Source of the DNA: Rhodospirillaceae bacterium
Lineage (GTDB): Bacteria; Pseudomonadota; Alphaproteobacteria; Bin65
Direction: 5' to 3'
Assembly: GCA_028819475.1 (NCBI GenBank)
Contig: JAPPLJ010000008.1
Span: 1-64,000, forward strand
Length of the DNA: 64,000 nucleotides
Part shown: one piece after another, positions 41,782 through 45,672 of the stretch
How positions within the stretch are numbered: position 1 is the first letter of the stretch
Layout of the letters: the number at the start of each line of letters is the position of its first letter
Program-made: the position numbers and the translations under genes
The notes under the pieces: model-generated
What the model saw: only the letters and a program-made list of their open reading frames with translations
The model's database searches: none
What the model was told of the DNA's origin: nothing

Positions 41782-41810
41782 TTGACCGGCCGCCGCCAAA
41801 CCATTAACAT
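41782..41810 (+). promoter_or_regulatory. Candidate plus-strand promoter of hpaG-hpaR
   Basis: TTGACC (41782-41787), a 17-bp spacer and TAACAT (41805-41810) form a plausible sigma-70 promoter directed towards hpaG. Its -10 box lies inside the TTAACATGTTAA palindrome, so a repressor bound there would block it. The leader would be roughly 85 nt. Confidence 0.5.
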
Positions 41811-41815
41811 GTTAA
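41804..41815. promoter_or_regulatory. Probable HpaR (MarR-family) operator
   Basis: TTAACATGTTAA is a perfect 12-bp palindrome in the only divergent gap of the hpa locus. AT-rich palindromes of this type are common MarR-family operators. It overlaps the -10 box of the plus-strand promoter and lies at the predicted start site of the minus-strand promoter, an ideal position for repression of both. The regulator gene hpaR is in the plus-strand unit and would then also repress itself. Confidence 0.6.
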
Positions 41816-41844: not shown

Positions 41845-41902
41845 TCGGATGGCCGGCGTGCGCAGGCCACAAAAACAGACCCGTAACCGGAGAAATTTTC
41901 CT

Positions 41903-42784
41903 TTGAAACTTTTGAGCTTTCGTGCCGACGGGCGGGACCGGTGGGGCGCGGCCGACGGCGCCGGCGCAATCGATCTCGGCGCACGTCTGGGCCGCTATCC
42001 CGATCTATTGTCCCTGTTGCGCGCCGAAGCGCTGGCCGAGGCCGAAAAGGCCGCCCGCGGCGCGCCAGCGGACTATGCGCTGGAGGATATCGCCTTCCTG
42101 CCGCCAATTCCCGACCCGGACAAGACGGTGTGCATCGGCGTGAACTACGCAAACCGGGACGACGAATATGTCGACAGGTCGGCGCAGGCGAAATATCCCA
42201 ACGTCTTCATGCGCACGCCGGGGTCGCTGACCGGTCACGGCCAGCCGGTCCTGCGGCCGCCGGAATCCGAACAGTTCGACTATGAGGGCGAGATCGCCAT
42301 CGTCATCGGCAAGCCGGGCCGGCGCATTCCGCAGGACCGGGCCGAAGACCATATCGCCGGCCTGACCTGCATCAACGAAGGTTCGGTCCGCGACTGGATG
42401 CGCCACGGCAAGTTCAACATCACCCAAGGCAAGAATTTTGAGCAATCCGGCGCCGCCGGCCCCTGGATGGTGACGGCCGACGAATTCGACGGTTATGACG
42501 ATCTGCGCGTCACGACGCGGGTGAACGGCGAGGTCCGGCAGGACGATACCACCGCCAACATGATCTTCGGCTTCCGCTATCTGATCGCCTACGTTTCGGC
42601 CTTCACGGCGCTGAAACCGGGCGACGTGATTTCCACCGGCACGCCGACCGGCGCCGGCGCCTTCTTCGACCCGCCGAAATGGCTGGTGCCCGGAGACATG
42701 GTGGAGGTCGAGGCGGCGGGCATCGGCACCCTTGCCAACAGGGTCGCGGACGACGAGAGTCCGCCCGCCCGGTTCGGCGGATGA
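41903..42784 (+). CDS. hpaG: Fumarylacetoacetate hydrolase-family protein, HpaG-like
   Basis: A 293-residue FAH-superfamily enzyme, probably the 2-hydroxyhepta-2,4-diene-1,7-dioate isomerase / decarboxylase of the homoprotocatechuate pathway. The FAH metal site is visible in F-D-Y-E-G-E-I-A, with I-N-E-G-S-V-R-D and S-T-G-T-P-T-G further on. The proposed start is TTG at 41903, giving L(M)-K-L-L-S-F-R-A-D-G, with GGAG ten bases upstream; an ATG 54 bp earlier gives an atypical basic extension. One FAH domain is present, whereas enterobacterial HpaG has two. It overlaps hpaR by 4 bp. Confidence 0.83.
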   Translation: MKLLSFRADGRDRWGAADGAGAIDLGARLGRYPDLLSLLRAEALAEAEKAARGAPADYALEDIAFLPPIPDPDKTVCIGVNYANRDDEYVDRSAQAKYPNVFMRTPGSLTGHGQPVLRPPESEQFDYEGEIAIVIGKPGRRIPQDRAEDHIAGLTCINEGSVRDWMRHGKFNITQGKNFEQSGAAGPWMVTADEFDGYDDLRVTTRVNGEVRQDDTTANMIFGFRYLIAYVSAFTALKPGDVISTGTPTGAGAFFDPPKWLVPGDMVEVEAAGIGTLANRVADDESPPARFGG

Positions 42785-43245
42785 ACGGCGACGGTCTTCC
42801 CGATCCGCCGATGCGGGATTTTTCCCGCTCGCTGCCGATGGCGCTGCTCAGGGCGCGCGAAGCGGTGATGGACCGGTTCCGGCCGTCGCTGCGCGATTTC
42901 GGCATTACGGAGCAGCAATGGCGGGTGCTGCGCGCCCTCCATGACCGCGGCGAGGTCGAGACCGGCGCGCTGGCCCACCTGTGCTGCCTGCTGACCCCCA
43001 GCCTCAGCCGCATCCTGAAGCATCTTGAATCGACCGGTCTGGTCTCGCGCCGCCCCGCGCCGTCCGACCAGCGCAGGACTCTTGTCGCCATTTCGCCGGA
43101 AGGCCGCGCGCTGCTCGAACGTCGGGCGCCGTATTCGGAAGCCCAGTACCGCGCCATCGAGGACGCGTTCGGCAAGGACCGGGTCGACGCCCTGTACGAG
43201 ACGCTCGAAAACCTGCACGACGCGCTGGAAAAGGAAAAATCGTGA
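42781..43245 (+). CDS. hpaR: Homoprotocatechuate operon regulator HpaR (MarR family)
   Basis: A 154-residue winged-helix transcriptional regulator. The region M-R-D-F-S-R-S-L-P-M-A-L-L-R-A-R-E and F-G-I-T-E-Q-Q-W-R-V-L-R-A-L matches HpaR. The recognition helix is around T-P-S-L-S-R-I-L-K-H-L, and the wing is R-R-P-A-P-S-D-Q-R-R. HpaR is a repressor released by pathway aromatics. Its start overlaps the hpaG stop codon (ATGA). The likely operator is the palindrome at 41804-41815. Confidence 0.88.
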   Translation: MNGDGLPDPPMRDFSRSLPMALLRAREAVMDRFRPSLRDFGITEQQWRVLRALHDRGEVETGALAHLCCLLTPSLSRILKHLESTGLVSRRPAPSDQRRTLVAISPEGRALLERRAPYSEAQYRAIEDAFGKDRVDALYETLENLHDALEKEKS

Positions 43246-43329
43246 TTTGACTGATAACCGGTGCGGGTTGACACTGTTCGCCAGCTGTCGATGCGGCAGC
43301 GCGGTGACACCCTGTCGAGGAGGCGCCGT

Positions 43330-43455
43330 ATGACGAACGATCCACCGGACGAACTTCCGGGCCGTCGGCTCCGTCGACACCCCGAACCGGTCGACGGACG
43401 ATACGGCCCGCTCCCGAAAGAACATCCAGTAAATTTGCGCGACTCTACAAGCTGA
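43330..43455 (+). CDS. Possible small protein after hpaR, 41 residues
   Basis: A 41-codon reading frame starts at an ATG with an excellent Shine-Dalgarno GAGGAGG (43317-43323) six bases upstream. The product would be hydrophilic, Arg/Pro-rich (for example G-R-R-L-R-R-H-P-E-P) and resembles nothing I recognise. The 3' end of the frame overlaps the first stem of the folded RNA candidate at 43434. It may be a real small protein, a leader peptide, or chance. Confidence 0.3.
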   Translation: MTNDPPDELPGRRLRRHPEPVDGRYGPLPKEHPVNLRDSTS

Positions 43456-43570
43456 GTCGCTGTGATCGGTCCGAGAGACCGTTACGCGCAAAGGCGCTGA
43501 ACCCCGTCTGACTTCACGCCCGCTTCAACCCGAAGCCGGCGTCGCAAGCGGCGGGGTTCTTACGTTTTTT
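43434..43570 (+). ncRNA. Candidate structured RNA with terminator-like end
   Basis: Several stems can form at once. TTTGCGC (43434-43440) pairs with GCGCAAA (43486-43492), enclosing hairpins GACTC/GAGTC (43441-43458) and CGGTC/GACCG (43467-43481). Downstream, AACCCCG (43500-43506) pairs with CGGGGTT (43552-43558). It encloses a hairpin with arms ACGCC/GGCGT and GCTTC/GAAGC (43516-43542) separated by one C-C mismatch. A TTTTTT run follows at 43565-43570. The element lies between hpaR and the convergent Fic gene, so it is either a separate small RNA or an elaborate 3' end. No known family was recognised. Confidence 0.45.
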
Positions 43571-43731
43571 CCGGGAAAGATCGGGATTTGTGTCCTTTCC
43601 TGCGACGGCGGGACGAAGCCGGTGGATATTGCTAACGCTGCTCTTTCGTTGATATTCGGCCCGACCGATCATCCCGCCCCGGATTTGTTCCGGCGCCCAG
43701 GGCCGTGAAGCGAGGCCGGCCGGGCCCGCCG

Positions 43732-44931
43732 CTACGATGGATCGATATCTGCAAACAGGTTCGGGAATAGCCGCTCGCGATAGTCGAGCGGGAACGACGG
43801 GCGCACCGGCGTCTTCGGCGATGCAGAGGCCAGAAATCCGGCCTCGACGAGTTTCCGCAGCGTATTCCGGGCTGTTCGCTCCGAGGTGTCGAGGGCGATG
43901 CCCGCCCGACCCCGCTCCAGTTCGCCGTTGTGCAGCACGGCAGCCGCGAGGGCCGGCGCCCGCCTGTCGTCGACGACGTCCGCGACAAGGCGGCGATACC
44001 GACGCTCCAGCCCGGCCAGATCGAAGAGCTTCGTCGAAAAGGCGATCTGGTCGAGCATCACCTTCAGGAACCAGATGCTAAATTCCCGAAGCGCCGCTTC
44101 GGAGAGGTTGCCGCGCCCGTCGCGGTCGCCCCGGCGTTCGCTGTCGGCATGATCCATCATCCGCCTGTACTCGCCCCGGTCTTCGAGACCGCGGGCCAGC
44201 CCGCGCGAAATCGACCACAGGCCCTGGGCGCCGATCCCCGCGTTCAGTGCCATGGCGTGCGACATCAGGCGGCTGACACGCCCGTTCCCGTCCGGAAAGG
44301 GGTGGATGTAGTTCAACCGATGATGCGCCGCGGCGATCGCGATGATCCGGCCGCTGGCCGACCCCTCGGCGGACCCGAAACGCCGCTCGAAATACGCCAT
44401 GAAGTCCGGGACGCGGTCGGACGAGGGCGGCCGGTGCCGGCCGACCGCAACCTCTGCGTCGCCGTCCCGGCGCATGCGGCCCGGCACGATCTCCTCTCGC
44501 CGGCCGTCCGGGTGTTCGACGAACCGGAATTCTTCCGGCATCTCCCCGTAGAATGCCCCGTGGATCCAGGCGAGAAACGCCACCGAGGTCGGCGATGGCA
44601 GCTCTCCCGCCAGGTGCACCTCGTCTATCCGTTGCTGGACGATGACGTGGGCGCGCGCTTCGAGCGCCAGAGGGCGGGTTTCTTCGTCGAGTTCGGCGCC
44701 GGCAAGGGCGCGTTCGATATCGTGCGGCCGGGTGTTGTGGCCTTCGATCAGGTTGGAATAATAGCAGTTCATCAGCCGCACGAGGCCGGCCAGTTCCGCG
44801 GCGCTGCCCGGATGCAGGCCGGTTCCCAGGCCGTGCGCGGCCCGTTCGACCTCTACCGCGAGGTCGGCCAGTTCGGCCGGAATATGCTCCTCGAACAGGC
44901 ACGGTTCGATCCTGCCGGGTGTTTCGAGCAT
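43732..44931 (-). CDS. Class II Fic-domain protein (putative AMP transferase)
   Basis: A 399-residue Fic protein. The inhibitory helix S-N-L-I-E-G is N-terminal (Ser59, Glu63, Gly64), which defines class II. The catalytic loop H-P-F-P-D-G-N-G-R-V-S-R is near residue 214 and is complete, so the enzyme should be able to transfer AMP (or another nucleotide) to a protein target when the inhibitory Glu is displaced. The C-terminal third contains a winged-helix-like region (T-S-E-R-T-A-R-N-T-L-R-K-L). The target is unknown. It stands alone; the AT-rich stretch directly upstream (44932-45010) may contain the promoter and suggests transfer. Confidence 0.9.
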   Translation of the reverse strand: MLETPGRIEPCLFEEHIPAELADLAVEVERAAHGLGTGLHPGSAAELAGLVRLMNCYYSNLIEGHNTRPHDIERALAGAELDEETRPLALEARAHVIVQQRIDEVHLAGELPSPTSVAFLAWIHGAFYGEMPEEFRFVEHPDGRREEIVPGRMRRDGDAEVAVGRHRPPSSDRVPDFMAYFERRFGSAEGSASGRIIAIAAAHHRLNYIHPFPDGNGRVSRLMSHAMALNAGIGAQGLWSISRGLARGLEDRGEYRRMMDHADSERRGDRDGRGNLSEAALREFSIWFLKVMLDQIAFSTKLFDLAGLERRYRRLVADVVDDRRAPALAAAVLHNGELERGRAGIALDTSERTARNTLRKLVEAGFLASASPKTPVRPSFPLDYRERLFPNLFADIDPS

Positions 44932-45121: not shown

Positions 45122-45646
45122 CTAGGCGTCCGCGCCGGTAAGCAGCCCCGCACAATCGGCGGCGGCGCGCTGCGCCCGGTCGGCGAGCGCCGGACCGTCG
45201 GCGCTGCTGATCGGGTGTTCGATCACGACGAAGGGGTAGCCGTCGGCACCGAGCACACGGGCCATCAATTCGGCCGCGCTGACGAAGGATTCCGTCATGA
45301 TGCCGGCGGAGGGAATCCCGAGGCGTTCTCCGGCAACCGCATCGTGCAAACTGCACGACGAGCAGCTGCCTCAGTCGCCGACCCCGGCGACCAGCGCGTG
45401 CCAGCGCTTCGCCTCGTCCATCAGCGCCGCGTCCGCCGGCGCGCTGAAGTTGGACTTGGTGCGCAGCACGACCTGCGCGACGCCGTAGCGCTGCCGGAGT
45501 TCCGTCTCGAAGGCCGAGAAGAAGCCTTTTGTGCCTTCCTTGCCGTTGGAGATCACCCCGACGATCGCGCCCTCGAGCGCGGCAAGCCGGGCTGCCGGCG
45601 CGAACGCCGTTGCGCCTTCCTCGTGCGACGGGTCGAGTAGCTGCAT
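45122..45646 (-). CDS. UGSC-family selenoprotein with in-frame TGA (Sec92)
   Basis: The frame runs from ATG 45644-45646 to TAG at 45122-45124, interrupted by one TGA at 45371-45373. Reading TGA as selenocysteine gives a 174-residue protein with Sec at residue 92 in V-G-D-U-G-S-C-S-S-C-S-L-H-D-A-V. U-G-S-C is the signature of the UGSC-containing selenoproteins first noted in marine metagenomes. The parts before and after the TGA share one frame and similar codon use and read as one conserved protein. A hairpin immediately follows the TGA (45332-45370). The start has GGAGG nine bases upstream and lies 26 bp after the partner gene. Function is unknown; the motif suggests thiol/selenol redox chemistry. 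A sequencing error hiding a Cys codon would give the known C-G-S-C form. Confidence 0.82.
45332..45370 (-). promoter_or_regulatory. SECIS-like hairpin directly after the UGA codon
   Basis: Reading the minus strand from the base after TGA, GGCAGCTGC pairs with GCGGTTGCC (nine pairs, two G-U). After an internal loop, CGTGCA pairs with TGCACG around a 3-base loop. A 39-nt stem-loop starting at the UGA is the position bacterial SECIS elements use to recruit SelB. The loop does not copy the E. coli fdhF loop, but bacterial SECIS loops vary. Confidence 0.55.
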
Positions 45647-45672
45647 CTTCTCTTCGCCTCCGGGCTGGCCGG

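What the first reader, a model, noticed from the sequence alone, without database searches (positions are those of the whole stretch)
43434..43570. Densely folded RNA candidate after hpaR
Seen: a two-hairpin multiloop closed by a 7-bp stem is followed by a 7-bp stem around a nearly perfect 10-bp hairpin and then six T. This much nested pairing in 137 bases is far above what the rest of the gap shows. It matches no RNA family I know and has no downstream gene on its strand.
Basis: partly seen in the sequence, partly recalled or inferred. Interest (0 to 1): 0.5.

Follow-up and report, generated by a model that had tools for sequence, protein, structure and literature searches.

The report
Genus-specific structured small RNA after hpaR
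The folded stretch is the 3' half of a conserved RNA-like element of roughly 285 bases, found so far only in one genus of bacteria known from metagenome bins (some from sponges); its structure is well supported, but whether it is transcribed and what it does are unknown.

Summary
The folding is real (z -5.1, 0 of 200 shuffles as good), but it is the 3' half of a longer unit. In 5 of 6 other genomes of the genus a conserved block runs from the hpaR stop codon to the terminator-type hairpin (43247-43560) and ends abruptly. It holds a promoter-like TTGAC(A) that scores in 2 of 6 genomes only, two 5' hairpins, a Shine-Dalgarno/ATG, a long stem, an A-rich linker, three small hairpins and the terminal hairpin. 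Compensatory and G-U changes keep the helices; paired positions exceed four-fold sites of hpaG+hpaR in 15 of 15 genome pairs, unpaired ones in 3 of 15. "No downstream gene" holds in the window, but 3 of 6 genomes have a same-strand Meth_synt_2 gene there and a fourth a remnant. No Rfam match up to E=10; no credible match outside the genus in 385 class genomes drawn. Best reading: a small RNA, probably trans-acting; transcription, targets and function untested or unknown.

The parts
43247..43275 (+). Promoter-like element: TTGACT (43247-43252), 17-nt spacer, GACACT (43270-43275); directly behind the hpaR stop codon
   Evidence: TTGAC invariant in 6 of 6. The sigma-70 scan scores this place in 2 of 6: TTGACA-17-GATAAT, 11/12, in G004 and TTGACA-17-GACAAT, 10/12, in G003; not in the window, G001, G005 or G002.
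43284..43300 (+). Hairpin 1 (GCTGTC/GGCAGC), near the inferred 5' end
   Evidence: 100% of cells paired, 3 of 6 pairs vary on one side (G-U type changes)
43302..43328 (+). Hairpin 2, holding the Shine-Dalgarno-like AGGAGG (43318-43323) partly paired
   Evidence: 98.1% of cells paired; alignment
43330..43455 (+). Small ORF, 41 aa here, 15 aa in G002, G003 and G004, 44 in G001, 87 in G005; start ATGACGAACGA invariant, remainder not conserved as protein
   Evidence: no Pfam match up to E=1
43358..43410 (+). Hairpin 3: outer stem CGGGCCGT/ACGGCCCG, inner stem TCCG.CGAC/GTCG.CGGA, conserved loop CCCGAACCG
   Evidence: 93.8% of cells paired in both stems, one pair with changes on both sides
43411..43438 (+). 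A-rich linker, variable in sequence and length; possible Hfq or RNase E site (inference)
   Evidence: alignments; lowest identity of the unit, 0.55-0.62
43439..43460 (+). Hairpin 4 (GCGACTC/GAGTCGC)
   Evidence: 100% of cells paired, one pair with changes on both sides
43467..43481 (+). Hairpin 5 (CGGTC/GACCG); in G004 CGATC/GGTCG, one compensatory pair and one U-A to U-G
43486..43497 (+).
43499..43559 (+). Terminator-type hairpin (GAACCCCG.../...CGGGGTTC) with covarying upper arm; followed by TTACGTTTTTT (43560-43570)
   Evidence: helices 8 and 9 (98.8% and 91.7% of cells paired; 3 pairs with changes on both sides, all in helix 9); identity 0.29-0.36 after 43575

Best explanation
The feature is the 3' domain of a structured small RNA of roughly 285 nt (about 43282-43567, + strand) that lies directly behind hpaR. 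I think it most likely has its own promoter and intrinsic terminator and works as a trans-acting regulatory RNA: conserved single-stranded segments (the ATGACGAACGA segment, the CCCGAACCG loop) would contact mRNAs or a protein, while the hairpins give stability. Read-through from the hpaG-hpaR genes could add to its level and tie it to 4-hydroxyphenylacetate catabolism. Shown: conservation, helices with covariation, restriction to the genus in the genomes searched, synteny with hpaR. Inferred: transcription, start site, termination, trans action, Hfq or RNase E, link to aromatic catabolism.
For: Orthologous place behind hpaR in 5 of 6 other genus genomes. On 71 pairs, 96.9% of cells pair (0 of 500 shuffles reach this), 9 cells have changes on both sides (4 of 500), covariation score 0.165 (1 of 500). 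Many G-C to G-U variants pair only on the + strand. Paired positions are more conserved than four-fold sites in 15 of 15 genome pairs. The promoter-like element reaches 11/12 in G004 and 10/12 in G003. The structure holds in G000 and G001, which have no Meth_synt_2 neighbour (paired 0.98, unpaired 0.87).
Against: No transcript data. The promoter scan scores in 2 of 6 genomes only. The U-tract next to the stem is short and interrupted, and the simple terminator scan did not score this hairpin in any of the 6 (same calls). Two covariation counts are not above shuffles: pairs with double-sided change, 6 (61 of 500 reach it), and further pair types, 26 (134 of 500); with partners slid by +3 the covariation score is still 0.129. 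I left 9 of RNAalifold's 80 pairs out of that count, 4 of them broken in 1-2 sequences. The 5' domain alone does not tell the strands apart (z -3.8 and -3.7). No convincing target came from two limited pattern searches. The best conserved step, 43325-43349 (0.90), holds the ORF start, which suggests translation may matter.
Confidence: 0.55

Rival explanations
1. It is the processed 3' untranslated region of the hpaG-hpaR mRNA: terminator, stability element, or an sRNA released by RNase E without a promoter of its own.
For: Conserved link to hpaR; starts at the hpaR stop codon; in G006 neither a close hpaR orthologue nor the RNA is found. A promoter scores in only 2 of 6 genomes. A perfect TTAACATGTTAA palindrome upstream of hpaG in 6 of 6 is a likely HpaR site (inference).
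Against: TTGAC with a -10-like hexamer at 17 nt is conserved in position between hpaR and the RNA and close to consensus in G003 and G004. The G007 hpaR homologue (59%) has no such 3' region (that genome is 75% complete). Length and order exceed what a terminator needs.
Confidence: 0.2
2. It is a cis-acting leader (attenuator or riboswitch-like) of the Meth_synt_2 gene that lies behind it on the same strand in G002, G003 and G004.
For: Same-strand Meth_synt_2 gene (PF01717) within about 0.3 kb of the RNA core in 3 of 6 genomes, 91-92% identical in G002 and G003 to that of G004; a 30-aa, 93% identical remnant in G005 behind fic; terminator-like hairpin and a leader-type small ORF.
Against: About 0.2 kb lies between terminator and gene, and by eye it is unlike between G004 and G002/G003. 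The structure is kept in G000 and G001, where no trace of the gene was found within the 10.3-kb loci. In G005 an antisense fic gene separates RNA and remnant. Homologues at 71-78% exist in G007-G010, but R1 finds no full-length RNA there. Only a 4-bp conserved alternative pairing for the terminator's 5' arm was found. The ORF has no methionine run.
Confidence: 0.15
3. It is a small mRNA or dual-function RNA whose main product is the short peptide beginning MTN(D/E)PP.
For: AGGAGG at good distance from an invariant ATGACGAACGA; the ORF start lies in the best conserved step, 0.90.
Against: Lengths are 41, 44, 87, 15, 15 and 15 aa in the 6 genomes and a one-base difference shifts the frame after codon 16. 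By eye most substitutions after codon 7 change the residue. A second conserved part, 43475-43524 (0.85-0.86), lies outside the ORF in 5 of 6 genomes. No Pfam match up to E=1.
Confidence: 0.08

Closest known systems
Alphaproteobacterial trans-acting small RNAs (e.g. AbcR, the alpha-r families; recalled, general kind only)
   Same: Intergenic, hairpins, terminal hairpin with T-rich tail, same class of host
   Different: No Rfam family matches this DNA up to E=10; longer, two-domain, with a start-codon region inside
Dual-function sRNAs such as VcdRP of Vibrio cholerae (PMC8672173; listing and start of abstract only)
   Same: A candidate sRNA carrying a small ORF with a ribosome-binding site
   Different: The ORF here is not conserved as a protein beyond its first codons
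3'UTR-derived sRNA such as the one released from glutamine synthetase mRNA (PMC9731577; listing and start of abstract only)
   Same: Lies directly behind metabolic genes
   Different: A promoter-like element stands between hpaR and the RNA, near consensus in 2 of 6 genomes

Membership tests
Any Rfam 15 family | Score at or above the gathering threshold | tested here: not met
   0 matches in the whole window; 0 matches up to E=10 for 43240-43590
Stand-alone bacterial sRNA | Conserved RNA secondary structure with compensatory change | tested here: met
   six sequences only, and two of five covariation measures are not above shuffles
Stand-alone bacterial sRNA | Own promoter | tested here: inconclusive
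   scored in G003 and G004, not in the window, G001, G005, G002
Stand-alone bacterial sRNA | Intrinsic terminator | tested here: inconclusive
   large conserved GC-rich hairpin with a short interrupted U-tract; the simple scan scored it in 0 of 6
Stand-alone bacterial sRNA | Discrete transcript | not testable with these tools
   no RNA data
Trans-acting base-pairing sRNA | Conserved complementary target | tested here: inconclusive
   two segments searched in 6 genomes; one recurrent site followed and judged antisense of a coding sequence, other matches not followed
Transcription attenuator or riboswitch leader | Regulated gene directly downstream | tested here: inconclusive
   none on the strand in the window, G001 and G005; an intact Meth_synt_2 gene in 3 of 6 genomes about 0.2 kb past the terminator
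Transcription attenuator or riboswitch leader | Conserved antiterminator alternative | tested here: not met
   only 4 bp with the terminator's 5' arm in the truncated alignment

The most novel reading that the evidence does not exclude
A new two-domain RNA family, unique to one genus of bacteria known from metagenome bins (some from sponges), in which a translated start region in the 5' domain (hairpin holding the Shine-Dalgarno sequence and invariant ATGACGAACGA) controls the stability or release of a 3' regulatory domain, linking aromatic-acid catabolism to other genes.
Probability: 0.15. Interest if true: 0.6.

Novelty: new member of a known kind. Interest (0 to 1): 0.35.

Why it matters
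It is a comparatively well-supported structured RNA candidate in a lineage met here only as metagenome bins, with a clear window of conservation, six natural variants and a fixed genomic neighbour. If transcribed, it would be a lineage-specific regulator in bacteria that include sponge symbionts, and sponge metatranscriptomes could test that directly.

Tried and rejected
Repeat or mobile element: in its own genome the next best match has E=0.2; no match in plasmids or phages at E up to 0.01, and none in viral contigs to an exact degenerate core pattern. Wider distribution: R1 matched 4 of 385 class genomes, all of this genus (stricter filters; G001 and G005 were not in that draw). Weak R1 hits: in G010 one of 28.3 bits covering only the terminator part, whose locus reads like protein-coding sequence by eye (untested), and one of 18.1 bits; in G004 a second hit of 18.1 bits, E 0.95. 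R2 gave 10 of 385, 4 in this genus and 6 at E 0.006-0.08, which over 385 genomes I take for chance. HpaR control of the RNA's own promoter: TTAACATGTTAA occurs once per 10.3-kb locus, upstream of hpaG, none near the RNA at up to 2 mismatches.

Targets: the complement of the ORF-start segment gave 59 matches in 6 genomes at up to 2 mismatches, 6 of them the RNA itself, against 0 for the reversed pattern. I attribute the excess to codon usage (inference). I followed only the one site that recurs in 6 of 6; it reads as the antisense of a conserved MKNDP-type coding frame. The complement of the terminator arm gave 15 matches including the 6 RNAs, against 16 for the reversed pattern; three 2-mismatch sites recur in 2-3 genomes and were not followed. 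Attenuator: no strong alternative fold.

Alignment A1 had three loci on the wrong strand and was discarded; A3 and A4 were replaced by A6 for the core because of ragged ends and a shifted hairpin. Of RNAalifold's 80 pairs I left out 9 (columns 18-46, 47-52 with 180-185, 55-56 with 63-64) before the count; 4 of those 9 are broken in 1-2 of 6 sequences.

Literature: the listed top results (10 each) show no report of this RNA; I read passages of PMC5649159 and PMC12879404 only, and listings with abstract starts for the rest.

Full report
What is there. The window is part of a 4.48-Mb, 72-contig genome. An FAA_hydrolase gene (41849-42784) and a MarR gene (ending 43245) lie on the + strand and a Fic-domain gene on the - strand at 43732-44931. 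The gap between hpaR and fic holds the finding. Folding of 43434-43570 on the + strand gives z -5.07 (0 of 200 shuffles as good); the - strand gives z -3.91 (0 of 200).

Extent and relatives. A 335-base query (43246-43580) matches its orthologous place behind hpaR in 5 of 6 other genomes of the same genus, E 5.9e-47 to 4.6e-136. In the sixth, G006, the best hpaR-like protein is 30% identical (E 7e-12) and R1 has no match. G007 of the same family has a 59% identical hpaR whose 3' side lacks the RNA. Of 385 class genomes drawn, R1 (core) matched 4, all of this genus. R2 (5' domain) matched the same 4 plus 6 weak hits at E 0.006-0.08, no more than 385 searches would give by chance. bin65 is a bin from the sponge Aplysina aerophoba (PMC5649159, abstract start and passages); the origin of the other bins was not looked up.

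Anatomy. Mean identity among the six is 0.55-0.90 in 25-base steps from 43250 to 43574 and 0.29-0.36 after that; the lowest steps within the unit are the promoter spacer (0.61) and the linker (0.55-0.62). The unit begins with TTGAC, invariant, directly behind the hpaR stop, and a -10-like hexamer 17 nt later: GATAAT in G004 (11 of 12), GACAAT in G003 (10 of 12). In the window, G001, G005 and G002 the scan does not score it. Then follow hairpin 1, hairpin 2 with AGGAGG, an invariant ATGACGAACGA, a two-part stem-loop with loop CCCGAACCG, an A-rich linker, hairpins 4-6 and the large terminator-type hairpin (coordinates under parts).

Structure evidence. On the 281-column alignment of six sequences, with 71 of RNAalifold's 80 pairs, 96.9% of 426 cells pair (0 of 500 shuffles), 9 cells have changes on both sides (4 of 500) and the covariation score is 0.165 (1 of 500). 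The number of pairs with a double-sided change (6; 61 of 500) and of further pair types (26; 134 of 500) are not unusual. Partners slid by +3 still reach 57% paired and a score of 0.129; the other slides stay at 36-42% and at most 0.053. The many G-C to G-U changes favour the + strand. Paired positions are 82-98% identical in the 15 genome pairs and above four-fold sites of hpaG+hpaR (67-92%) in 15 of 15; unpaired ones are 56-90% and above four-fold sites in 3 of 15. The structure used for that split comes from the same alignment, which helps it somewhat.

The downstream gene. In G002, G003 and G004 a Meth_synt_2 gene lies behind the RNA on its strand. G005 keeps a 30-aa remnant (93% identity) behind its fic gene, with a piece of the C-terminus joined to it. 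G000 and G001 show no match at E up to 10 within their 10.3-kb loci. A tree of hpaG+hpaR pairs G005 with G004, G002 with G003 and G000 with G001; rooted on G007, G000/G001 branch first (support 0.89). So the gene may have been gained after that split and then broken in G005, or lost twice. Either way the RNA stays intact where the gene is absent or broken, and by eye the DNA between terminator and gene is not alike between G004 and G002/G003. A pure leader function is therefore unlikely, though not excluded.

The small ORF. It has a good Shine-Dalgarno sequence and an invariant start, in the best conserved step of the unit (0.90), but codes for 41, 44, 87, 15, 15 and 15 residues in G000, G001, G005, G003, G002 and G004, with a frame-shifting one-base difference after codon 16. 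Translation of the start region may tune folding or decay; a conserved protein product is unlikely.

Function. Most likely a small RNA with its own transcription unit, or else one cut from the hpaR mRNA. Transcription, trans action and the link to aromatic catabolism are inferred. The region upstream of hpaG carries a perfect TTAACATGTTAA palindrome in 6 of 6 loci, a candidate HpaR site; none lies near the RNA's promoter, so HpaR could reach the RNA only by read-through. Two pattern searches for complementary targets in six genomes gave no convincing target; only one recurrent site was followed.

Known or new. No Rfam family matches, and no plasmid, phage or viral match was found. The top listings of four literature searches show nothing like it. 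The kind, a lineage-specific bacterial small RNA, is well known; this family appears unnamed.

Noticed in passing
window 45122-45652, - strand: Probable selenoprotein of the UGSC family: reading one in-frame TGA (45371-45373) as selenocysteine gives ...GVGD-U-GSCSSC..., PF24696 UGSC, E 1.9e-46. PMC2398784 is a paper on marine selenoproteins that uses the term UGSC (listing only). SECIS and tRNA-Sec were not looked for.
   Followed up: partly
window about 41804-41815: Perfect palindrome TTAACATGTTAA upstream of the hpaG-like gene, invariant in 6 of 6 genus loci; likely HpaR operator (inference). G007 has a longer version, TATTTAACATGTTAAATA (by eye).
   Followed up: partly
L072 (G005), behind fic: Meth_synt_2 pseudogene: about 30 N-terminal residues joined to about 17 C-terminal ones, the middle missing.
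   Followed up: partly
window 43732-44931, - strand: Fic-domain gene next to the RNA in G000 and G005 only, of six, though these are not sister genomes; patchy gain or loss.
   Followed up: no
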